From the NCBI GenBank assembly GCA_005889345.1, contig VBFR01000185.1, forward strand, positions 1 through 55,814: a DNA stretch of 55,814 nt, given 5' to 3'. Within the stretch, counting starts at the first letter, position 1; each line of letters starts with the position of its first letter. The position numbers and the translations under genes were made by a program. The stretch is from Chloroflexota bacterium. Lineage in GTDB: Bacteria; Chloroflexota; Dormibacteria; CF-121. Shown one piece after another: positions 3,235 through 52,526 of the stretch. The notes beneath the pieces were generated by a model that made no database searches, was not told the DNA's origin, and saw nothing but the letters and a program-made list of their open reading frames with translations.

Positions 3235-5361
3235 ATGCCTGAAAACGAGCGAATTCCGGCCGACTTCCACCAGGCCATGTTTCGCATCGCCGCGATCGCC
3301 TTTGTGACCGCGGCGACGGTCGATGTGGGCAGCAGCTACATCGGGGCGCCTCACCTCGACTTCGCCGGCATCTGGATCATCGGCATCCTCTCTTATGTCG
3401 GCGCCGTGGTGAGCTGGTTCTTCCCCTGGCACCGGCTGCCGGTGGAGCGATTCCTGGTGGTCATCGTCATGCCGGGCCTCGTGCTGCTCGGGTTCATGCT
3501 GATGGCCACGGGCGGCGTTCACTCGCACATCCTGCCGATCTTCATCGCTCCCGCCGTCTTCATGGCGGCGGCGTACGGGTTCCGCGCGGGGGCCGCGATC
3601 GCGATCCTGACGGCCGCGACGGGAACGCTGCCGCTCTTCATCAACGGCTGGGACAGCAACTACGGCCGGACCCTGGTCGTGCTGGCGGTCGCGACCATGC
3701 TGTGCGCCTACATCTCGGCCCGCGTCCGACAATCGCTGCTCAACGAGTACGAAACGCGGCGCCGGCAACAGGAAGAGAGCTACGTGGCCACCATCGGCGC
3801 CCTGGCGGCTGCCCTGGACGCGAAAGACCGCTACACGGAGGCGCATTCGCGGGAGACCGCCGAGTTCGCCGTCAACGTCGGCAAGCGCCTCCACCTGCCG
3901 GCCGACCAGCTGCGCCTGCTCGAATACGGCGCTCTGCTTCACGACATCGGCAAGATCGGCATTCCCGGCTACATCCTGCAGAAGCCCGGGGCGCTGACGC
4001 CCGAAGAATTTGCCATCATGCGCGAGCACCCGGTGATCGGCGAACGGATCCTCGCCTCGGTGCCGTTCCTTGCCCCGCTCGGCCCCATCGTTCGGGCTGA
4101 ACACGAGCGATGGAATGGCACGGGGTACCCCGATGGCCTCAAGGGAGAGGAGATTCCGATCGAGGCGCGCATCATCCACGCTTGCGACGCGTTCCACGCG
4201 ATGGCCTCGGACCGTGCCTACCGCAAGGCATTGCCGATGGCGTCGATCGTGGCGGAGTTTCAGAAGGAAACCGGCCAGCAGTTCGACCCCCGAGTGGTCG
4301 ACGTGCTGCTGGAGCTGATCGAGAGCGAACCGCCGCACATCTCGGCACCCGCCCAGGCGTCCGGCCAACCGATGCCGGACACGAGCGTGTCAGGTCCGCG
4401 CGGCTGGGCCCAGCACATGCAGACCGTGGAGGCGCTCGGACAACAGCTTGCCCGCGCGACCAGCATCGAGGATATCAGCAGCCGGATCGGGGCGACGATT
4501 TCTACGCTGGTGCCGCACGACCAGTGCCGAGTGCTGTTGATGAACGAAGACCGCACCCAGCTCAAGGTCGTCTACCTGAAGGGGACCGATCGCGAAGAAT
4601 ACCGCGCCGTGACGCGGGAAAACGCGGCGGTGGAAGTGGGGGAGGGCATTACCGGCTGGGTGGCGGAGTCGCGTCGCGGCGTCGTGCTGGGTGATACCGA
4701 GCACCATCCGAAGGCGAAGCACGTCCCTGGCACCGCGATGATCGATGAGTCGATGCTCGCCGTGCCGGTGGTCTTCGAGGACGAGATCCTCGCGGTCATC
4801 GTCGTCACCAAGCTGGGACTGAATCAGTACTCGCTCGACCAGCTCCGGTTGCTGACGATTCTCGCCAACCAGGCGGCGGTGGCGATGGCGAACGCCCGGC
4901 TGATCGAGCGACTCGCCTCGGCAGCGACGATCGATGCCTTGACCGGCTTGATGAACCGCGCCGCGTTTGAGGAGGCGGTCAACAAACTCATGCTGCGCCC
5001 GCAGTCGTGGGGGACGTTGCTGATGCTCGACGTGGAGAAGCTTCGCGACGTGAACGAGGCCTACGGTCACCGCGCCGGCGACGCCGTGCTCAAGCGGATC
5101 GCCCGGGCGATTCGCGCCTCGATCCGCAGCGACGACGTGGCGGCCCGCTGGATCGGCGACAACTTCGCCATCCTTGCCCCGGGCTTCTACGCCAGCCAGG
5201 CGGACGTCCTCGCCAAGCGGATCGAAACTGCGCTGCAATCCGACCGGGTTTCGATTCGGTGGGGGACCGCCGAATACCACGGGGATGCGCTGACCGCTCA
5301 GGACCTGCTGGCGGCGGCGCTCAAGTCGCTGGCCGGCAAGCGCGACGACGTCGCCGCCTGA
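3235..5361 (+). CDS. membrane HD-GYP phosphodiesterase with GAF domain and C-terminal degenerate GGDEF domain
   Basis: N-terminal TM segments; HD-GYP motifs LLHDIGKIGIP and GTGYPDGLKGEEIP; GAF; GGDEF-fold remnant with WIGDNFAIL in place of GGDEF. Confidence 0.9.
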   Translation: MPENERIPADFHQAMFRIAAIAFVTAATVDVGSSYIGAPHLDFAGIWIIGILSYVGAVVSWFFPWHRLPVERFLVVIVMPGLVLLGFMLMATGGVHSHILPIFIAPAVFMAAAYGFRAGAAIAILTAATGTLPLFINGWDSNYGRTLVVLAVATMLCAYISARVRQSLLNEYETRRRQQEESYVATIGALAAALDAKDRYTEAHSRETAEFAVNVGKRLHLPADQLRLLEYGALLHDIGKIGIPGYILQKPGALTPEEFAIMREHPVIGERILASVPFLAPLGPIVRAEHERWNGTGYPDGLKGEEIPIEARIIHACDAFHAMASDRAYRKALPMASIVAEFQKETGQQFDPRVVDVLLELIESEPPHISAPAQASGQPMPDTSVSGPRGWAQHMQTVEALGQQLARATSIEDISSRIGATISTLVPHDQCRVLLMNEDRTQLKVVYLKGTDREEYRAVTRENAAVEVGEGITGWVAESRRGVVLGDTEHHPKAKHVPGTAMIDESMLAVPVVFEDEILAVIVVTKLGLNQYSLDQLRLLTILANQAAVAMANARLIERLASAATIDALTGLMNRAAFEEAVNKLMLRPQSWGTLLMLDVEKLRDVNEAYGHRAGDAVLKRIARAIRASIRSDDVAARWIGDNFAILAPGFYASQADVLAKRIETALQSDRVSIRWGTAEYHGDALTAQDLLAAALKSLAGKRDDVAA

Positions 5362-44692: not shown

Positions 44693-45024
44693 TGCGCGAT
44701 TACCTTCGTCTGGCCCGCCGACCCGATCATCATGGGCGTGCCGGTCGGCACGCAGGTCCCGGCCACCGGAGGCAAGGCGAGCAACACCGGCATCCCACCA
44801 ACGAGGACCTTCGTGCTGCCGGACGGGATGATGCCGCTGACGCACGGACCATTCGCAACCGGCGGTGGGGGAAAGGCGCAGCCGGCCACCACGTAAGACG
44901 CGGGGATGGTCACCACCGGCTGACTGCCGACCATCACCTTCGGACTGACGGTCGTGCACTGTCCCTGCCCGCCGTGCATGCAGGTCACCGTGCCGCCCAT
45001 GTTGACGATTGGTCCGGGCATCAC
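44689..45024 (-). CDS. PAAR-like spike tip protein of eCIS
   Basis: MPGPIVNMGGTVTCMHGGQGQCTTVSPKVMVGSQPVVTIPASYVVAGC...KVLVGGMPVLL. Confidence 0.85.
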   Translation of the reverse strand: MMPGPIVNMGGTVTCMHGGQGQCTTVSPKVMVGSQPVVTIPASYVVAGCAFPPPPVANGPCVSGIIPSGSTKVLVGGMPVLLALPPVAGTCVPTGTPMMIGSAGQTKVIAQ

Positions 45025-46820
45025 ATCACCTGCAGGGCGCCGCTGTTGACGTCAACCATTGCCCCGGTAATCTTGAGTTGTCCGCTGGCCTTGACCTCGA
45101 CCTGCGATCCACCTTCGAGCGAGGCTCCGGAGGACCCCTTCATCTTGAGGTCGGTCCCGGCCTCGAGCTTGAGCCCTTGCCCTGCCTTGAGGTTGATATT
45201 GGCCTGGGACTCGAGCGTCATGTCCTGCTGGCTCTCGACGTGAACTTTTCCTTGCGAGGAGATGTGAATCTCGGAGTTGGTCTCGTTGAGCGAGATCTTC
45301 AACTTGCCGTCGCTGCTGATGAAGGCCAGCCCGGCTTTGCTGGCGTCGTCGAAGAAGATGAATTGGTGGCCCTTGCGCGAGATGAAGCCGCGTCGCTTGA
45401 CCTTGCCGTTGTCGAAGAGTCCGTTGCCGAGTTTGGGTTTGTCCTGCCCGTTATGGAGGCTGCCGACGACGTAGGGCCGCCGGATGTCGCCGAACTCGAA
45501 GGCCACCAGGACTTCGTCGTTTACCTCGGGGATGAAATGCGCGCCGCTGTCCGGCCCGGCGCCCAGCTGGGTGATGCGAGCCCAATCCGACTCGTAGTCG
45601 TCGTCAAGCCAGGGAAACTTGAGCTTGACGCGCGCCGCGTTGTTGGGGTCGTTGTTGTCGGTGACGAGCGCCACCACCACGCCGTTGATGGGCGCGCCGC
45701 CGGCGGACGCGTGGCCGTTTGATGAGCCCAACGACGCGAGGCCAAGCAGCGACCGGTCCTGCCGGCCGCTGATCACGAACTGCGTGCGATAGCCCTGCTC
45801 GCCGAACACGTGGCGGGCGCTGGTGAGGGTGTACTTGCCCGAGAACGTATCGCCCACGACGCCCACGCTGACAGTCGTCCCGGCCTTGAGCTTGGGGTTA
45901 CCGTTCGCAAGGCCGTCGGCCTCGGCAAAGGCGCTGGAGATCAACTCGGCGATCGACCCCGCCGCCCCGTCGACCTGGGCCTGCTGGGTGAGCGGCCGGT
46001 TGACGGCGGTAAAGGTCGGACCGCCAAATTTGTTCGCCAGGCTCGAGGGGGTGTCCTGCAGCGAATCGGTCGCTACGGTGGCCGCGTTGGCCGAGCCGAT
46101 CACCGCCTGCTTCTGGACGGGGTCCCAGCCGCGCACCTTGACGTCGTTGACTTGCTCGGCCGACGTGACCCGCGGTCGGAACTCGATCAGGTCATCGCCG
46201 AAGACGAGTTGCAGGGGATCGCTGTGGTTCTGATAGGTCCCGTGCTGGGGCGCGCCCGATGCCTGGATCGGCTGGCGGAAGTTGAACTTTCCATTTTCCA
46301 TCGCGAGCTCAAAGCCGATCTCTCGCGCCCGCGACTTCAAGAAGTCCCAGTCGGACTGATTCGCCTGCGAGACATGATCGAAGGTTCCCGAGGTCGAATC
46401 GATCTGTCCGACACTGAGACCGGCGCGGTTGGCGACCTTTCGCGCGATGTCGGAATCGGTCACGTTCTTGTAGGTCTCGGTCCGGCGTCCGCGGTGCAGT
46501 CGGTGCGACATGTCGTAGCCACGCAGCACGGTGCGAAGGCGGGTCGCGCCATATTCCGCCTCGAAGCCGGTCACCTCACCCTTGATCAGGGTTTCCGGCG
46601 ATCCGCCCGGTGGGGTCACCTTGATGGTGACGGTGTCGCCGATCGTGGCGTTGAGCCTTCCCAGGACGTCGCGATCGGGATCGTGGAAGGTGATCGCAAA
46701 CATATCGGGAAGGTGCTGGTGATGATCGACGACAACCTGCTCCAACAGCCCCTCCATCTCATCGGATAGGGCCGATCCGTTGAGCTGGATATCCGGCCAG
46801 ACATGGAAGGACTGCGCCAC
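45021..46820 (-). CDS. VgrG/Gp5-Gp27-like spike protein of eCIS
   Basis: VVALVTDNNDPNNAARVKLKFPWLDDDYESDWARI...FIPEVNDEVLVAFEFGDIRRPYVVGSLHNG. Confidence 0.93.
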   Translation of the reverse strand: MAQSFHVWPDIQLNGSALSDEMEGLLEQVVVDHHQHLPDMFAITFHDPDRDVLGRLNATIGDTVTIKVTPPGGSPETLIKGEVTGFEAEYGATRLRTVLRGYDMSHRLHRGRRTETYKNVTDSDIARKVANRAGLSVGQIDSTSGTFDHVSQANQSDWDFLKSRAREIGFELAMENGKFNFRQPIQASGAPQHGTYQNHSDPLQLVFGDDLIEFRPRVTSAEQVNDVKVRGWDPVQKQAVIGSANAATVATDSLQDTPSSLANKFGGPTFTAVNRPLTQQAQVDGAAGSIAELISSAFAEADGLANGNPKLKAGTTVSVGVVGDTFSGKYTLTSARHVFGEQGYRTQFVISGRQDRSLLGLASLGSSNGHASAGGAPINGVVVALVTDNNDPNNAARVKLKFPWLDDDYESDWARITQLGAGPDSGAHFIPEVNDEVLVAFEFGDIRRPYVVGSLHNGQDKPKLGNGLFDNGKVKRRGFISRKGHQFIFFDDASKAGLAFISSDGKLKISLNETNSEIHISSQGKVHVESQQDMTLESQANINLKAGQGLKLEAGTDLKMKGSSGASLEGGSQVEVKASGQLKITGAMVDVNSGALQVM

Positions 46821-46823
46821 CTG

Positions 46824-47507
46824 TCAGCTCTCCTTCTTCGTGCCGTCGGTGGCTTCGTCGCGGCTGGGGATCAGGATGCGGCTGCCGAGATCCAGGCGCA
46901 GCGGGTCATCGATGTCGTTGAAAATGGCTAGCCCGCGCCACAGCCCGGGGTTGCCGTACTCCTCGTTGGCGATCGACTGCAGCGTGTCACCTTCGGAGAT
47001 CAGGTGGGTTGCGCGCGCGTGGATCGACCCCGACGTCGGATTCTGGGCACCGGGCGGATCGGGCGACTCCTTCAGGCTGATGTCTGCGGTCGCTCGCAGC
47101 GGGTTGCCCGTGCGTCCGAACATCGTGTACTTCGCGTTCACCGAGGCCAGGTAGAACTTGCGCTCGGCGAGGTGGAGGTTGCTGCCCCAAACGAGTCGGA
47201 GCAGTGGGGGATGGGGGGTGTCCTGCCCGATCGATTTGCGGCTTGGCGTGCACCACTTGAAGAGTTTCTCGACATCTTTGGTCACGTCGCCGACGGCGGT
47301 TTCCCAGTCATCGAAGAAGATCTGCATGTTGACCGTCTGCGGACTGGTGCCGATGAACTCCGGCTTGGCACCGGCCTTGGTGCTCATGCTGCGTTTCGGC
47401 GCGTCCCATTGCGCGCTCTTCTGCACGGAGTACTCGCTCGGGTTGAATTTGAACTCGAGCTTTCCCGCGCCGTCGACTTCTTCGAGTTTCGCTTTGACCA
47501 TCTTCAT
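46824..47507 (-). CDS. LysM-containing eCIS adaptor protein (Afp7-like)
   Basis: FKFNPSEYSVQKSAQWD...ATHLISEGDTLQSIANEEYGNPGLWRGLAIFNDIDDPLRLDLGSRILIP. Confidence 0.9.
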   Translation of the reverse strand: MKMVKAKLEEVDGAGKLEFKFNPSEYSVQKSAQWDAPKRSMSTKAGAKPEFIGTSPQTVNMQIFFDDWETAVGDVTKDVEKLFKWCTPSRKSIGQDTPHPPLLRLVWGSNLHLAERKFYLASVNAKYTMFGRTGNPLRATADISLKESPDPPGAQNPTSGSIHARATHLISEGDTLQSIANEEYGNPGLWRGLAIFNDIDDPLRLDLGSRILIPSRDEATDGTKKES

Positions 47508-47522: not shown

Positions 47523-47951
47523 CTATTCCGCGAGAAATCCGTTGTGGGCGAGCTCGAGGGTTTCCGTGGCCACCTGGTTGGCGCCAATGTCGAGCGAGGG
47601 TCCATTCCATTTGACCGGGAAGACGCCTTCGAGGTTCCAGGTCGCGACGGGATTGCCCTCGGTGTCGAGCGCGGCGATCTCCGCGGTCTGCCGCTTGACT
47701 TCGATCTTGAGCTTGGCCATCCAGTTGGCAACTTTCTTGGAATCCTTGTTGACCGGCCGTGTGAGCTTGATGTTCTGGTACTTGGCGCGCCCTGGGATGC
47801 GGTGGACGAAGGCGTTCTCGCCGCCCTCCTTGTACTCAAAGACGTCGTACTCGACCGCGAGCCCGTCGCACTTCGACCAGTTTCCAAGGTCGCCGTGGCC
47901 ATCGATCTTCACTCGGAACCGCAGGCTTTGGGCGTGGGGACTGTCAGCCAT
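47523..47951 (-). CDS. T4 gp19-like tail tube protein (second tube paralogue)
   Basis: FRVKIDGHGDLGNWSKCDGLAVEYDVFEYKEGGENAFVHRIPGRAKYQNIKLTRPV. Confidence 0.9.
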   Translation of the reverse strand: MADSPHAQSLRFRVKIDGHGDLGNWSKCDGLAVEYDVFEYKEGGENAFVHRIPGRAKYQNIKLTRPVNKDSKKVANWMAKLKIEVKRQTAEIAALDTEGNPVATWNLEGVFPVKWNGPSLDIGANQVATETLELAHNGFLAE

Positions 47952-47961
47952 CGTCTCCTCC

Positions 47962-49944
47962 TCAGCGCAGGTCGGTCAGGAAGCCCGCGCGCTCCCGATC
48001 GACCAGTAGTTCTGTTTTCAGCCGGGTGCGGATCCGGTCGTAGAGCTTGCCGGCGAGCTCGTCCATGTCCGTCTCGGCGGAGGAGTGGCTGCCCAGGGGT
48101 GAGGCGACGCCGCTTATCGTGGAGCCGGCCGCGCTGGCGGCCGATGAGCCTGCGGACGAGGCCATGCTCCTCGCACCGGATGAAATCGAGTCGTACCAGG
48201 CGCCCTGGACGGTAGACGCCCCACCATCCGTGGGAGATTCGGTGGACTCCGACTCCGCTTCGCCAGCGGTCTGCGTTGTGCGCTGCACCGCGACGACGCG
48301 TGATGGCGCCAGCGGGAGCCTCGCTGATGTCCCTCGCTCCCCCTGCGGGGGTGAGTCGGCGTAGGGGGTGTCTTCGCTCGCTCTCATGACATGAAGCTCA
48401 CGCCCTCCTTGCTGCGGTTGGTCGAGGTCGGGAGCATCGCTCGTCCGCTGCACGAAGCCCGGGCTCGCCAACGGAAGCGCCATACCCTCGACCTGCGGCG
48501 GTTCCGCGAAGGCGCCGTCGCTCGCCCTCATCACCGGGACTGCCTGCGGGTGATAGGGCTGCTTGCTCTCCGTGGAAGGAACCGCCCGTTCCCCTTGCGC
48601 CGAAGGCTCGGCATAGGGCATAGAGGCACTGGTCGACGCCGCTCGTTGGGCCGTCACCGTCGGCCGTAGCGGCCGGGCGCCGACGAGCGGGGCGATCACA
48701 GTGTCTCGACTGGATGCTGGTGAGGCGGTGGCGACGCGGCCCGGTGATTCTGACACCAGCGGCCACGTCGACGGTGAGAGATTCGCAAGGGCGACCGGCG
48801 GCGAGGACGGCAAGGCCGGCGCAAGACGCTGCAGGGCCGACGGCTCGGACGGCGACGCATCATCGGCGGCCTCTGCCAGGGACGTCGCGCTCAGCTGGAC
48901 CGACGGTGCTCGCGCCGGGATCGATGGGCGGGCGAGCGGCAAGGCCAGGCGGGGACCATCAACGGCGTCAGTCGAGGGCGGGGGCGGCGCGCCCGGCAGC
49001 GACGCTCTCCATTCCGTGACGCCAGACGAGAGCTCCACCGGAGCCGTCGGAGCTGTCGGAGCCGTCGGAGCCGTCGGAGCCATCGGAGCCAGGGGTAGTC
49101 CGATTGCCACCCGCTGCGCCACCGCGTGCGTCGGCAGTGGTCCAACCGGGGATGCGTCGATCGGCGCCGGCGTCACGGAGGAGGCGTCGATCGAATCGCG
49201 GCTGCCGGCGGAGACGTCAATCGGGTCCTTCTCCCTCTGGGGTGCCGGAGCGAGGGGGAGTTCCGCGCGCTGCACGCTGTGGTCCGGAACCTGCCTGATG
49301 GGGGCTCCGAGGCCCATCCGTCGCGACTGACCCAGCGTGAGACGCTGGGCCGGCACCAGCGCCGGCGCGGCGTCGGATGGCTCATCGGTCGGGGTCGAGG
49401 TGGCAAGAGCAGCCGACACGGCTTTTGACCGCTGTGCCACGGGAGCGATCGGCGCCGGATCGGCGCCTGGGGGCAGGCTGGTCAGTCGCTGCGTCACGGG
49501 CTCCGGTGCAACTACCGGAAGCTCGACGGCGGCGGCCGGAGGTGCGCTCATGGGAACAGGGGTGGGCCGCGCCAGGTCGGGCGCGGCCTCATCCCCATCC
49601 CACTCCCCCGACTCCGTTACCGCGCCGGCCACGCTGCGCTGCAGGCGTGGGCGCGGGATCATGGCCGGGCCGTCGCTGCGTGTCGTCGGCCGGGCCAGGG
49701 CCAGGACCAGACCTGGTGGTGCGTCGGCGCTGACCTGATGGCCCATCGTGCCAGTCGTAACCGATGGATCCTGATGGGTCGCCAGGTCATCGCTGAACTC
49801 ATCACTCGGTGCGGTGAGCGGGTGCGCGCCAACGAACCGCTGGATGGGCGGCAATCCCGCCCAGTCCCGGCGGATGACGGGCGCCGGCACCGGGCGCGGT
49901 CCCTCCGCCGCCGGTGCCTCAACCTTCCGTCGAAACGGCCACAT
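47962..49944 (-). CDS. long Pro/Ala/Ser-rich eCIS-linked protein with QR motifs and a conserved-looking helical C-terminus
   Basis: 660-aa ORF inside the eCIS operon; 12 QR dipeptides, recurrent LPLA(P/R/S); C-terminus DELAGKLYDRIRTRLKTELLVDRERAGFLTDLR. Confidence 0.8.
   Translation of the reverse strand: MWPFRRKVEAPAAEGPRPVPAPVIRRDWAGLPPIQRFVGAHPLTAPSDEFSDDLATHQDPSVTTGTMGHQVSADAPPGLVLALARPTTRSDGPAMIPRPRLQRSVAGAVTESGEWDGDEAAPDLARPTPVPMSAPPAAAVELPVVAPEPVTQRLTSLPPGADPAPIAPVAQRSKAVSAALATSTPTDEPSDAAPALVPAQRLTLGQSRRMGLGAPIRQVPDHSVQRAELPLAPAPQREKDPIDVSAGSRDSIDASSVTPAPIDASPVGPLPTHAVAQRVAIGLPLAPMAPTAPTAPTAPTAPVELSSGVTEWRASLPGAPPPPSTDAVDGPRLALPLARPSIPARAPSVQLSATSLAEAADDASPSEPSALQRLAPALPSSPPVALANLSPSTWPLVSESPGRVATASPASSRDTVIAPLVGARPLRPTVTAQRAASTSASMPYAEPSAQGERAVPSTESKQPYHPQAVPVMRASDGAFAEPPQVEGMALPLASPGFVQRTSDAPDLDQPQQGGRELHVMRASEDTPYADSPPQGERGTSARLPLAPSRVVAVQRTTQTAGEAESESTESPTDGGASTVQGAWYDSISSGARSMASSAGSSAASAAGSTISGVASPLGSHSSAETDMDELAGKLYDRIRTRLKTELLVDRERAGFLTDLR
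48331..48370. repeat. possible third, diverged REP-like element inside the QR-motif protein gene
   Basis: ccctcgctccccctgcgggggtgagtcggcgtagggggtg, coding YADSPPQGERG on the minus strand. Confidence 0.4.
49040..49090. repeat. 9-nt in-frame tandem repeat (about 5.7 copies) inside the QR-motif protein
   Basis: ggagccgtc-type units encoding TAPTAPTAPTAP on the minus strand. Confidence 0.85.
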
Positions 49945-49947
49945 ATC

Positions 49948-50112
49948 CTACGACTCCTGCTCTTCCGCGAGGCGCCGATTGATGCCGGCGATCTCTTCGA
50001 CGACGCGCTGGCGGACCGGATGCTCTAGATCGAGAATCTCTTCGAACGACCAGTGCAGGTGATACGCCACGTACGCGATCTCCTCGAAGAGGCGGTCGGT
50101 CGCGTACGTCAC
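49948..50112 (-). CDS. DUF6760-like small eCIS protein (54 aa, GTG start), absent from the supplied ORF track
   Basis: Translated by hand: VTYATDRLFEEIAYVAYHLHWSFEEILDLEHPVRQRVVEEIAGINRRLAEEQES; GTGA overlap with upstream gene. Confidence 0.85.
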   Translation of the reverse strand: MTYATDRLFEEIAYVAYHLHWSFEEILDLEHPVRQRVVEEIAGINRRLAEEQES

Positions 50113-50528
50113 AACCCCCCCAGGCGACCACCTGCCATGTCTACGGTGAACTGGTGCTTGCAGTCCGGACAGGTGACGGCCGCCTGCGTGTGCCCCTCCT
50201 GGTTGATCCTGCGATAGAGGTCCTGGAGGAACGCGAGGTCGGAGGCGAAGAGCCCTTCGATGGTCCCGGAGGTCACCTGCGGCACGGTGCCGAGCCTGGT
50301 GACCACCCGGGACAGCAGCAGGACCGTCAGGTAAGCCTCGTTGTCGCGCACCCGTGGGTCGCGCTGGGGGAGGATCTCGTCACGAGCGGTCGCCAGCCGC
50401 ATCACACCCTCGCGATGCACCGTCCCGGCCTCGTCGACGTAGCCGCGCGGCAGAGCGAAGGCGAATTCGGTGTGAAGTGGAGCGGAGGTCGAACGCTCGA
50501 CCTCCGCCATGCTGGATACCGGACTCAC
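50109..50528 (-). CDS. T4-family baseplate hub assembly chaperone-like protein with C-terminal CxxC
   Basis: FAFALPRGYVDEAGTVHREGVMRLATARDEILPQRDPRVRDNEAYLTVLLLSRVVTRLG...LFASDLAFLQDLYRRIN; CPDCKHQF. Confidence 0.87.
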   Translation of the reverse strand: MSPVSSMAEVERSTSAPLHTEFAFALPRGYVDEAGTVHREGVMRLATARDEILPQRDPRVRDNEAYLTVLLLSRVVTRLGTVPQVTSGTIEGLFASDLAFLQDLYRRINQEGHTQAAVTCPDCKHQFTVDMAGGRLGGL

Positions 50529-50986
50529 TTGACCCGCTCGAAGCCTTCCATGACGATCGTGGCTTCCTCAGTGACAACCTCGTTGGACCCCGCCTTGAGC
50601 GCCCCGGTCGTGAGCTTGGAGGGCCAGGCGTTGACGAAGTTCCAGCGTGCGATCTCGCCGGCTTCGTAGTCGTAGAGGATCACCGACCCGTTCTTGCGGG
50701 CTTCCTTGACCTTGCCGTCCAGCGCCGCCTTGTGCCACTTGTAGAGGTCCATCGAGACGTTCTTGGCTCGCTTCAGCGTCAGCGTCGGCGTCTTGTGCGC
50801 GCCCGGGATCTTCTTGATGATCAGCTTGCCGTCGGGGCCGTTCTCCTTCAGCTCGGTGACATCCATCTCGGAGGTCAAGCCGCCAACCTCGGTGAACTGT
50901 GCGATGGTGGTGCCGTCGATCTCGATCGCGAAGTTACGTGCGGCGATTGCGTCGTTGTTCGAAACATTCGGAACGCCTGCTGCCAT
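50525..50986 (-). CDS. T4 gp19-like tail tube protein (first tube paralogue)
   Basis: NFAIEIDGTTIAQFTEVGGLTSEMDVTELKENGPDGKLIIKKIPGAHKTPTLTLKRA. Confidence 0.93.
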   Translation of the reverse strand: MAAGVPNVSNNDAIAARNFAIEIDGTTIAQFTEVGGLTSEMDVTELKENGPDGKLIIKKIPGAHKTPTLTLKRAKNVSMDLYKWHKAALDGKVKEARKNGSVILYDYEAGEIARWNFVNAWPSKLTTGALKAGSNEVVTEEATIVMEGFERVK

Positions 50987-50996
50987 CTATCCCTCC

Positions 50997-52526
50997 TTAT
51001 TCGCTGAGCGATGTGCCGCCCGAGAACTGGGCGATCTTGAAGACGACGAACTCCGCGGGTTTGACCGGGGCGATCCCGATCTCGACGATGAGCTGGCCCG
51101 CGTCGATCGTCTCCGCGGTGTTCACCTCGCCGTCGCATTTGACGTAGAACGCTTCGCTGGGCGTGGCTCCGAAGAGCGCGCCGTCGCGCCAGACGCGGAC
51201 CAGGAAGGCGCTGATGGTGCGCTTGACCCGTTCCCAGAGCGCCATGTCGTTGGGCTCGAAGACCACCCACTGGGTGCCCAGCAGGATGGAACCCTCGATG
51301 TAGTTGAAGAGCCGGCGGACGTTGATGTACCGCCACGCCGGATCGCTGGAGAGGGTGCGCGCGCCCCAGACCCGGATGCCGCGACCGGGGAAGGCGCGAA
51401 TGACGTTGATCCCCTGCGGGTTCAGCAGGTCGTGCTCGCTCTTGGTGACCTGCAGCTCGAGGGAGATGGCGCCGCGGACGACTTCATTCGCCGGTGCCTT
51501 GTGCACGCCGCGGGTGTCGTCGCTGCGCGCCCAGATGCCGGCCATGTGGCCGCTCGGCGGAACGAAATTCGCCTGGCCCGCGAGCGGATCGAAGACCTTG
51601 ACCCACGGCCAGTAGAGGGTGGCGTACTTCGAGTCGTAGCCCGCCTTGTCGACCCGCCACTCGCGGATCTGCTGCGCGTTCAGCCCGGGCGGGGCATCGA
51701 GAATGGCGACCCGGTCGCCCATCAGCTCGCAGTGGGCGATCATCGCCAGCTGTACGGCCTTGACCTGGTCGGCGTCGATCATGCCGCGCTGGTACGCGGC
51801 CATCAGGTCGGGGACGCTGAGCATCGTGACGGTGTCGACGGCTTCGAGACCGGCAAATCCGGTGCGGTCGGCAGAGTTGCCCACGTACTCGTCCGGGGTG
51901 ACCCGGGCGGGCATCGTGGCGCCGCCGCCCTGAAGCGTAACCTTGCCCGGGGCGGGGACCTTCTCCAGTGCGCCGGCGGTCCCGATCTCCTCGAGCTGGA
52001 TTAGCTTCGACGCGGTCTTGACAGCAGTGACGACGTTGTTCTTGCCTTTGCGCGTCGTGACGTTGTCGTACTCTTCGCGATCCTTGCCGCGCGTGATGAT
52101 CAGCTTGAAGGTGTCTTCCGCGGCCTGCGAGGCCTCAGCGACCTCGACCTGGATGTCGTTGCCGGGCTGACCGCCCTCCAACGCCAGGACGCGATATCCG
52201 GCCAGCGACTTGTCCTTCGCGCTCGCCAGCTCCGCCTGGGCTGCGGGGGCGTGGCCGTCCGCGCCGATGCGAACGATGTACGCGGACCCACCGCCGTTCA
52301 GGAAGTAGCCATAGACGGAGTGCGCGAGGTACGACCCTTCAAGGAAGCCACCAAACGCCTGCGAGAACTGGCTCCAGTTGGTGACCAACGTTGGGCTGTT
52401 GACGGGACCCTTCTCGGCGAGACCGACGAAGGCCGCCGTTGCGGTCCCAACACCCTCGATCGGGCGTGAGCCGGCTTCGACCTCCTCTACGTATACACCG
52501 GGCGATAAGTAATTGGGCATGGGCAA
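50997..52526 (-). CDS. contractile tail sheath protein of eCIS
   Basis: NYLSPGVYVEEVEAGSRPIEGVGTATAAFVGLAEKGPVNSPTLVTNWSQFSQAFGGF...VWGARTLSSDPAWRYINVRRLFNYIE. Confidence 0.96.
   Translation of the reverse strand: MPMPNYLSPGVYVEEVEAGSRPIEGVGTATAAFVGLAEKGPVNSPTLVTNWSQFSQAFGGFLEGSYLAHSVYGYFLNGGGSAYIVRIGADGHAPAAQAELASAKDKSLAGYRVLALEGGQPGNDIQVEVAEASQAAEDTFKLIITRGKDREEYDNVTTRKGKNNVVTAVKTASKLIQLEEIGTAGALEKVPAPGKVTLQGGGATMPARVTPDEYVGNSADRTGFAGLEAVDTVTMLSVPDLMAAYQRGMIDADQVKAVQLAMIAHCELMGDRVAILDAPPGLNAQQIREWRVDKAGYDSKYATLYWPWVKVFDPLAGQANFVPPSGHMAGIWARSDDTRGVHKAPANEVVRGAISLELQVTKSEHDLLNPQGINVIRAFPGRGIRVWGARTLSSDPAWRYINVRRLFNYIEGSILLGTQWVVFEPNDMALWERVKRTISAFLVRVWRDGALFGATPSEAFYVKCDGEVNTAETIDAGQLIVEIGIAPVKPAEFVVFKIAQFSGGTSLSE

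What the first reader, a model, noticed from the sequence alone, without database searches (positions are those of the whole stretch)
47962..49944. Long disordered eCIS-operon protein with repeated QR/LPLA motifs: candidate tape measure, scaffold or cargo tether
660 aa, strongly Pro/Ala/Ser-rich, with 12 QR dipeptides (VQRAELPLAP, VAQRVAIGLPLAP, FVQRTSD, AVQRTTQ). A clear internal duplication is visible: VMRASDGAFAEPPQVEGMALPLASPGFVQRT versus VMRASEDTPYADSPPQGERGTSARLPLAPSRVVAVQRT. It ends in a helical, charged C-terminus (DELAGKLYDRIRTRLKTELLVDRERAGFLTDLR) that looks like a docking segment. It sits between DUF6760 and the second tube gene, and no other tape-measure candidate is visible. The function is inferred.
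Basis: partly seen in the sequence, partly recalled or inferred. Interest (0 to 1): 0.6.

Follow-up and report, generated by a model that had tools for sequence, protein, structure and literature searches.

The report
Disordered tape-measure-slot protein of eCIS
A bacterial injection machine related to phage tails carries, exactly where phages keep the gene that sets tail length, a long unfolded protein with a conserved C-terminal helix; every machine of this type that we checked has it, including the Streptomyces one reported to lack a length-setting gene, so it is a testable candidate for the missing ruler.

Summary
The ORF is real: minus strand, 660 aa. It is disordered throughout except for a C-terminal helix, residues 623-652. 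QR (12 vs 1.9 expected) and LPLA (5 vs 0.1) are strongly over-represented. The claimed internal duplication is not statistically supported.

It belongs to a family present in all 58 Streptomycetaceae loci examined, in Chloroflexota and in other Actinobacteria, in the slot between DUF6760 and the tube initiator. The gene two upstream is a phage tail-assembly-chaperone homologue and DUF6760 resembles P2 gpE', so this is the tape-measure position of P2 and Mu. Three segments are under purifying selection: an N-terminal module, an LGQSRRLGLG motif and the C-terminal helix. In relatives the same protein carries an intact (G017) or decayed (G010) eCIS_core/DUF4157 domain, lost here.

S. coelicolor-type genomes encode 1357-1378 aa in this slot (SCO4249 by gene order). 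Published structure: 60 tube layers, identical lengths, tape measure gene "absent". That gives 22.6-23.0 aa per ring; phage Mu gives 23.0.

Best reading: a disordered, tape-measure-like luminal scaffold (0.5). Against: no coiled coil, not reported in particle mass spectrometry, no sign of length constraint. Rivals: cargo/adaptor, or assembly factor outside the particle.

The parts
47962..49944 (-). Tape-measure-slot protein, 660 aa, intrinsically disordered
   Evidence: Intact ORF; AlphaFold2 mean pLDDT 46; homologues in the same slot in Chloroflexota and Actinobacteria
49645..49944 (-). Conserved N-terminal module, residues 1-100 (MWPFRRK...RRDWxxLPPxQR...PLTA...F...DLATHxDPS...GHxVSxxAPxGLV)
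   Evidence: dN/dS 0.08-0.12 against 0.4-0.6 in the middle; consensus of 18 proteins
49285..49344 (-). Conserved short motif, residues 201-220 (RLTLGQSRRxGLGAPI)
   Evidence: dN/dS 0.05-0.09; present in distant members; short helix 204-209 in the AlphaFold2 model
48310..48684 (-). Residues about 421-545: slot that holds eCIS_core/DUF4157 in relative G017 and a decayed copy in G010; here replaced by disordered sequence
   Evidence: PF13699 E 6e-23 in the G017 homologue; 31% tblastn match in G010 with QERAH in place of HELTH; flanking RPLRP and LPLA anchors; highest dN/dS, about 0.6
47965..48084 (-). Conserved C-terminal helix and tail, residues 621-660 (AETDMDELAGKLYDRIRTRLKTELLVDRERAGFLTDLR)
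   Evidence: pLDDT about 92; dN/dS 0.06-0.21; profile A2 finds it in other eCIS loci
49948..50112 (-). DUF6760, 54 aa, resembles phage P2 gpE' (second tail assembly chaperone)
   Evidence: PF20546 E 1e-13; profile comparison with P2 gpE' E 4e-4, probability 34%
50109..50528 (-). Tail assembly chaperone homologue with CxxC zinc-ribbon-like end
   Evidence: PHROG 508 tail assembly chaperone, E 5e-6 here and 2e-6 to 3e-6 in relatives; weak Gp41_Mu and Phage_TAC_7; Foldseek match to Mu FS-gp41, probability 1.0, rmsd 3.3
47523..47951 (-). Second tube gene (tube initiator, Cis1b-like)
   Evidence: PF06841 E 5e-35; best solved relative is 9gtp chain a, E 9e-36
50525..50986 (-). Main inner tube gene
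   Evidence: PF06841 E 1e-34
50997..52526 (-). Sheath, closest to the solved sheath 8bky (also in 9gtp with the Cis1b-type tube initiator)
   Evidence: phmmer E 6e-199
46824..47507 (-). LysM hub
   Evidence: PF19266 CIS_tube E 2e-24
45021..46820 (-). VgrG-related spike
   Evidence: NF033848 E 1e-184

Best explanation
This is the tape-measure-slot protein of a Streptomyces-like (type IId-like) eCIS, and it most likely works as a disordered luminal scaffold. The conserved C-terminal helix docks on the spike/hub/tube-initiator complex encoded immediately downstream. The unfolded Pro/Ala-rich chain runs up the tube lumen while the TAC/DUF6760 chaperones load tube subunits around it. The conserved N-terminal module reaches the cap, so chain length would set the number of tube rings. 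The recurring VQR and LPLA motifs are weak contact sites along the chain, either for the lumen wall or for the accessory DUF4157 protein, whose tail carries the same VQR motif. Shown: gene position, ubiquity, disorder, the conserved segments, motif enrichment, and the DUF4157 gain/loss series. Inferred: lumen location, docking partners, length control.
For: (1) Gene order sheath-tube-TAC-DUF6760-THIS-tube initiator-hub-spike equals P2 FI-FII-E-E'-T(tape measure)-U-D and Mu tube-41-41/56-42(tape measure)-43-44-45. (2) The chaperone identity rests on PHROG 508, weak Gp41_Mu/TAC_7 matches, fold match to Mu FS-gp41 and DUF6760 vs P2 gpE'. (3) 58 of 58 Streptomycetaceae loci, and every family-mate whose contig reaches that far, have it in the slot. 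(4) S. coelicolor-type genomes (tube initiator 100% identical to PDB 9gtp_a): 1357 and 1378 aa for 60 tube layers, all particles identical in length, tape measure gene stated to be absent = 22.6-23.0 aa per ring. Mu: 690 aa for 30 rings = 23.0. Diffocin: at least 817 aa for 32 layers = at least 25.5. (5) A conserved C-terminal helix and conserved N-terminus match the diffocin tape measure, whose C-terminal helices sit on the spike and whose N-termini touch the collar. (6) Streptomyces particles and Streptomyces homologues (1108-1433 aa) are both unusually long.
Against: No coiled coil and no transmembrane segment, unlike known tape measures. Particle mass spectrometry of S. coelicolor names SCO4242, SCO4251 and SCO4256 but not SCO4249 among detected proteins of unknown function. 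It is not among the nine modelled proteins, which disorder could also explain. Gap lengths in pairwise alignments show no compensation: net length change equals random expectation in the genus and exceeds it in Streptomyces. Some members carry DUF4157, a domain typical of eCIS cargo. Only one species links protein length to ring number.
Confidence: 0.5

Rival explanations
1. Cargo or cargo adaptor: the protein is packaged in the lumen, held at the spike by its C-terminal helix, and ejected on contraction, with the VQR motifs and (in relatives) DUF4157 binding or delivering effectors; it does not set length.
For: DUF4157 is present inside the protein in G017 and several Actinobacteria. Tme of S. 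davawensis (DUF4157, about 70% disordered, immediately upstream of the baseplate genes) co-purifies with tip, tube initiator and spike; its locus-tag spacing (7576, 7578, 7580) fits the same slot in the two-tube-initiator clade. Sle2 (DUF4157) binds the tube initiator SlpT2. The stand-alone DUF4157 proteins share the VQR repeats (86 observed, 23 expected).
Against: No effector or toxin domain in any family library. The gene is universal in the slot, not accessory. No other tape-measure candidate exists although particle length is uniform.
Confidence: 0.3
2. Assembly scaffold or chaperone client that is needed to build the tube or baseplate but is not part of the finished particle.
For: Not reported in S. 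coelicolor particle mass spectrometry while its neighbour SCO4251 was. Disordered, fast-evolving middle. It lies next to two chaperone-like genes.
Against: Absence from a mass-spectrometry list is weak for a low-copy protein; BW3, a structural baseplate wedge protein, was also missed. The spike-proximal helix and conserved N-terminus resemble a protein that spans the tube.
Confidence: 0.15
3. Degenerate remnant: a former DUF4157 effector that lost its active domain and now drifts.
For: DUF4157 intact in G017, decayed in G010 (QERAH in place of HELTH), unrecognisable here; middle dN/dS 0.4-0.6.
Against: Intact ORF in every genome; strong purifying selection on three segments, dN/dS 0.05-0.21; QR enrichment kept across the family, 693 observed vs 149 expected.
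Confidence: 0.05

Closest known systems
Phage tape measure proteins (P2 gpT, Mu gp42) and diffocin TMP CD1366
   Same: Gene position behind tube and tail assembly chaperones and before initiator/hub; one long ORF; C-terminal helix; conserved N-terminus; about 23 aa per tube ring in the S. coelicolor-type homologue
   Different: No coiled coil or helical body, no transmembrane helices, 14-22% proline, no detectable sequence similarity
Tme, tapemeasure-related effector of Streptomyces davawensis (BN159_7576; PMC11126660)
   Same: Long, largely disordered, immediately upstream of tube initiator/hub/spike genes; relatives of the window protein carry the same DUF4157 domain
   Different: Tme keeps DUF4157, has predicted transmembrane and coiled-coil segments and a C-terminal EndA-like nuclease; the window protein has none of these and ends in the conserved helix
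Sle1/Sle2 pair of Streptomyces lividans (PMC13277306)
   Same: eCIS-associated proteins; Sle2 carries DUF4157 and binds the tube initiator
   Different: Encoded upstream of the sheath, not in this slot; Sle1 is a coiled-coil protein with transmembrane helices
Afp14/Pvc14 tape measures
   Same: Presumed function
   Different: From general knowledge, encoded near the end of the Afp/PVC operon rather than behind the tube; reported absent from Streptomyces clusters (PMC10066040, PMC12237407); sequence comparison not run here

Membership tests
Tape measure protein (phage/CIS) | Gene directly downstream of tube and tail assembly chaperone(s), upstream of initiator/hub | tested here: met
   Searches compared with P2 and Mu
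Tape measure protein (phage/CIS) | Predominantly alpha-helical, coiled-coil body | tested here: not met
   AlphaFold2 mean pLDDT 46, only helix 623-652 confident; 14% Pro
Tape measure protein (phage/CIS) | Hydrophobic/transmembrane segments (common, not universal) | tested here: not met
   Maximum 19-residue Kyte-Doolittle mean 1.02
Tape measure protein (phage/CIS) | Helical C-terminus anchored on spike/hub | tested here: inconclusive
   Conserved C-terminal helix shown; docking not testable here
Tape measure protein (phage/CIS) | Protein length proportional to tube length | tested here: inconclusive
   One species only: 22.6-23.0 aa/ring vs Mu 23.0; length-compensation test null
Tape measure protein (phage/CIS) | Located in the tube lumen; deletion or truncation alters length | not testable with these tools
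   Needs genetics and cryo-EM
Tme-like CIS effector | DUF4157 in the protein | tested here: not met
   No Pfam hit in P0001; present in relative G017
Tme-like CIS effector | Slot immediately upstream of tube initiator/hub/spike | tested here: met
Tme-like CIS effector | C-terminal effector domain | tested here: not met
   C-terminus is a 30-residue helix; no Pfam, NCBIfam or PHROG hit
eCIS_core (DUF4157) protein | PF13699 domain with HExxH | tested here: not met
   Absent from P0001 and not found in the assembled genome
eCIS, Streptomyces type (IId-like) | Sheath, two tubes, LysM hub, VgrG spike, gp25, J, I, Pvc16 cap and AAA ATPase together | tested here: met
   sheath nearest to solved sheath 8bky and tube initiator nearest to 9gtp_a

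The most novel reading that the evidence does not exclude
Streptomyces-type eCIS, reported to lack a tape measure, use an intrinsically disordered tape measure (SCO4249 in S. coelicolor; 660 aa in this Chloroflexota genome) with short recurring lumen-contact motifs instead of a coiled coil. It shares ancestry with DUF4157 cargo proteins, so ruler and cargo carrier would be one family.
Probability: 0.4. Interest if true: 0.8.

Novelty: new variant of a known kind. Interest (0 to 1): 0.62.

Why it matters
Two structural studies of Streptomyces contractile injection systems state that no typical tape measure gene exists although all particles have the same length. This work points to one specific, universally present, uncharacterised gene for that job and predicts ring number from protein length, so the question becomes directly testable. 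It also links the tape-measure slot to DUF4157 proteins, a very widespread eCIS domain of unknown role, through relatives that carry an intact, a decayed or no DUF4157 domain. If a disordered chain can measure a tube, the idea that tape measures must be helical bundles would need revision.

Tried and rejected
Family libraries (Pfam, NCBIfam, PHROGs) on the protein itself: no hit. Search of the tail profile against solved structures: only a chance-level match to Cullin-3. Internal duplication: not above a shuffle null. Length conservation by compensating indels: no support. DUF4157 absent from the whole genome: probably an assembly effect, since in relative G016 a stand-alone DUF4157 gene lies just past the ATPase gene, and the window's contig ends 88 bases after that gene. 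Direct profile comparison of the chaperone with Mu gp41 alone: no signal, so that identification rests on PHROG 508 and fold. No second species with both a known particle length and a known homologue was found.

Full report
WHAT IS THERE. The coordinates hold one uninterrupted ORF on the minus strand, ATG start, 660 aa. It has no match in Pfam, NCBIfam or PHROGs. QR occurs 12 times (1.9 expected on shuffling) and LPLA 5 times (0.1 expected). AlphaFold2 with an 18-sequence alignment gives mean pLDDT 46 and a single confident element, helix 623-652. No transmembrane stretch is present.

THE OPERON. On the minus strand the order is sheath (50997-52526), tube (50525-50986), a 139-aa protein (50109-50528), DUF6760 (49948-50112), this protein, second tube (47523-47951), LysM hub, VgrG spike, gp25, J and I. 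A Pvc16 cap gene and an AAA ATPase lie divergently upstream. The sheath is closest to the solved sheath 8bky (E 6e-199) and the second tube to chain a of 9gtp, so this is a Streptomyces-type eCIS.

THE SLOT. The 139-aa protein matches PHROG 508, tail assembly chaperone (E 5e-6 here, 2e-6 and 3e-6 in relatives), weakly matches Gp41_Mu and Phage_TAC_7, and its predicted fold matches Mu FS-gp41 (probability 1.0, rmsd 3.3, E 0.02) and, weakly, YqbN. The best viral fold matches by E-value are annotated as T4-like baseplate hub assembly or baseplate proteins, and a direct profile comparison with Mu gp41 alone gave nothing. DUF6760 resembles P2 gpE' (E 4e-4, probability 34%). In P2 the order is FI-FII-E-E'-T-U-D and in Mu tube-41-41/56-42-43-44-45, T and 42 being the tape measures. 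The window protein therefore occupies the tape-measure slot.

THE FAMILY. A profile of the C-terminal 40 aa finds relatives in Chloroflexota and Actinobacteria. Synteny is conserved. All 58 Streptomycetaceae loci fetched hold a slot protein with the tail. In the window's family, every genome with this eCIS has it unless the contig ends first. Lengths: 616-679 aa in the genus, 1108-1433 aa in most Streptomyces, 380-1433 aa overall. In Streptomyces clavuligerus the 1381-aa ORF is left unannotated but for a 71-aa piece.

CONSERVED SEGMENTS. Between the window and three relatives dN/dS is 0.08-0.12 in residues 1-100, 0.05-0.09 in the LGQSRRxGLG motif (201-220), 0.06-0.21 in the tail, and mostly 0.4-0.6 beyond residue 220 apart from the tail. 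The protein thus has three fixed points joined by loosely constrained chain.

DUF4157. The homologue in G017 (another genus) carries an intact eCIS_core domain (E 6e-23) between RPLRP and LPLAP anchors. In G010 the same stretch is a decayed copy, QERAH in place of HELTH. In the window it is unrecognisable. Several Actinobacteria also have the domain in this protein. Same-genus genomes have a separate DUF4157 gene in the same locus. The window genome shows none, but its contig ends 88 bases past the ATPase, near where that gene would begin.

THE QR MOTIF. Across 56 family members QR is observed 693 times against 149 expected and its number grows with length (r = 0.77). Structural proteins of the locus show no overall enrichment (J has 6 vs 2.2). 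Stand-alone DUF4157 proteins do (86 vs 23; 15 or so of these lie in the domain itself) and several end in VQGAFVQREE-type repeats. Members with DUF4157 in cis from the two-tube-initiator clade are not QR-rich; this may simply reflect ancestry. The motif is therefore shared by the two non-structural proteins of the system; its partner is unknown.

LENGTH. Two genomes whose tube initiator is 100% identical to PDB 9gtp_a encode 1357 and 1378 aa in the slot. Nine proteins were modelled in the S. coelicolor particle: SCO4243-4248, 4252-4253 and 4260. Given the conserved order, the slot gene is SCO4249 (inference). That particle has 60 tube layers, uniform length and, in the authors' words, no tape measure gene. 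The ratio is 22.6-23.0 aa per ring, against 23.0 for Mu (690 aa, 30 rings) and at least 25.5 for diffocin. This is one data point, and the sign test on indels gave no evidence that length is under compensating selection.

MECHANISM PROPOSED. C-terminal helix on the spike/hub, as in diffocin where C-terminal TMP helices sit on the spike and N-termini meet the collar; disordered chain through the lumen; N-terminal module at the cap; chaperones TAC and DUF6760 bringing tube subunits. Shown: position, ubiquity, disorder, fixed points, motif enrichment, ratio. Inferred: location, partners, length control.

WHAT SPEAKS AGAINST. Known tape measures are helical; this is not. S. coelicolor particle proteomics lists SCO4242, SCO4251 and SCO4256 but not SCO4249 among unknown proteins. 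Tme of S. davawensis, which by gene position appears to belong to the same slot, acts as an effector, and particles of a Tme stop mutant were still about 200 nm long, although the stop removed only the last domain. A cargo or adaptor role therefore remains a serious rival. Because the helical-body criterion was tested and not met, the protein is not filed as a member of the tape measure family; the claim is only that it sits in that slot and may work like one.

NOVELTY. DUF4157-bearing slot proteins were recognised as Tme-like effectors in one CIS group (PMC11126660). What I did not find in the papers searched is the slot protein of the Streptomyces/Chloroflexota type, its conserved tail, its chaperone-tape-measure gene order, the DUF4157 loss series and the shared VQR motif.

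Noticed in passing
window:50109-50528 (-): Uncharacterised 139-aa zinc-ribbon-like eCIS protein is a phage tail assembly chaperone homologue (PHROG 508; fold like Mu FS-gp41); its S. coelicolor counterpart would be SCO4251.
   Followed up: yes
L068:13253-14011, L014:868-1737, L037:3625-4395: Stand-alone DUF4157 proteins of these loci; several end in acidic tandem repeats of the type VQGAFVQREEDEE, sharing the VQR motif with the slot protein.
   Followed up: partly
L103:5960-10105: Streptomyces clavuligerus plasmid: a 1381-aa slot-protein ORF is unannotated in the record's gene table except for a 71-aa fragment and an opposite-strand ORF.
   Followed up: partly
L122:1769-2362, L124:1981-2466, L120:5057-5635: In distant Chloroflexota eCIS loci a second protein (small and without Pfam match, or a 193-aa DUF4157 protein in L120) ends in the same kind of C-terminal helix, as if the tail were a shared docking tag.
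   Followed up: partly
window:40433-41770 (-): Zinc-ribbon plus F5/8-type-C-like protein just downstream of the baseplate genes, the place where S. coelicolor encodes the membrane protein CisA.
   Followed up: no
window:5500-12747 (+): A 2415-aa protein with right-handed beta-helix and bacterial Ig-like repeats, unrelated to the eCIS cluster.
   Followed up: no
window:37539-40436 (+): BTAD-type regulator convergent with the eCIS operon, as next to many eCIS loci.
   Followed up: no
L018 (6587-8506), L019 (3747-4181): In two relatives the former DUF4157 slot holds repeats such as PHPALPRKQERE and QQGGRE that look like translated interspersed repeats; origin not tested.
   Followed up: no
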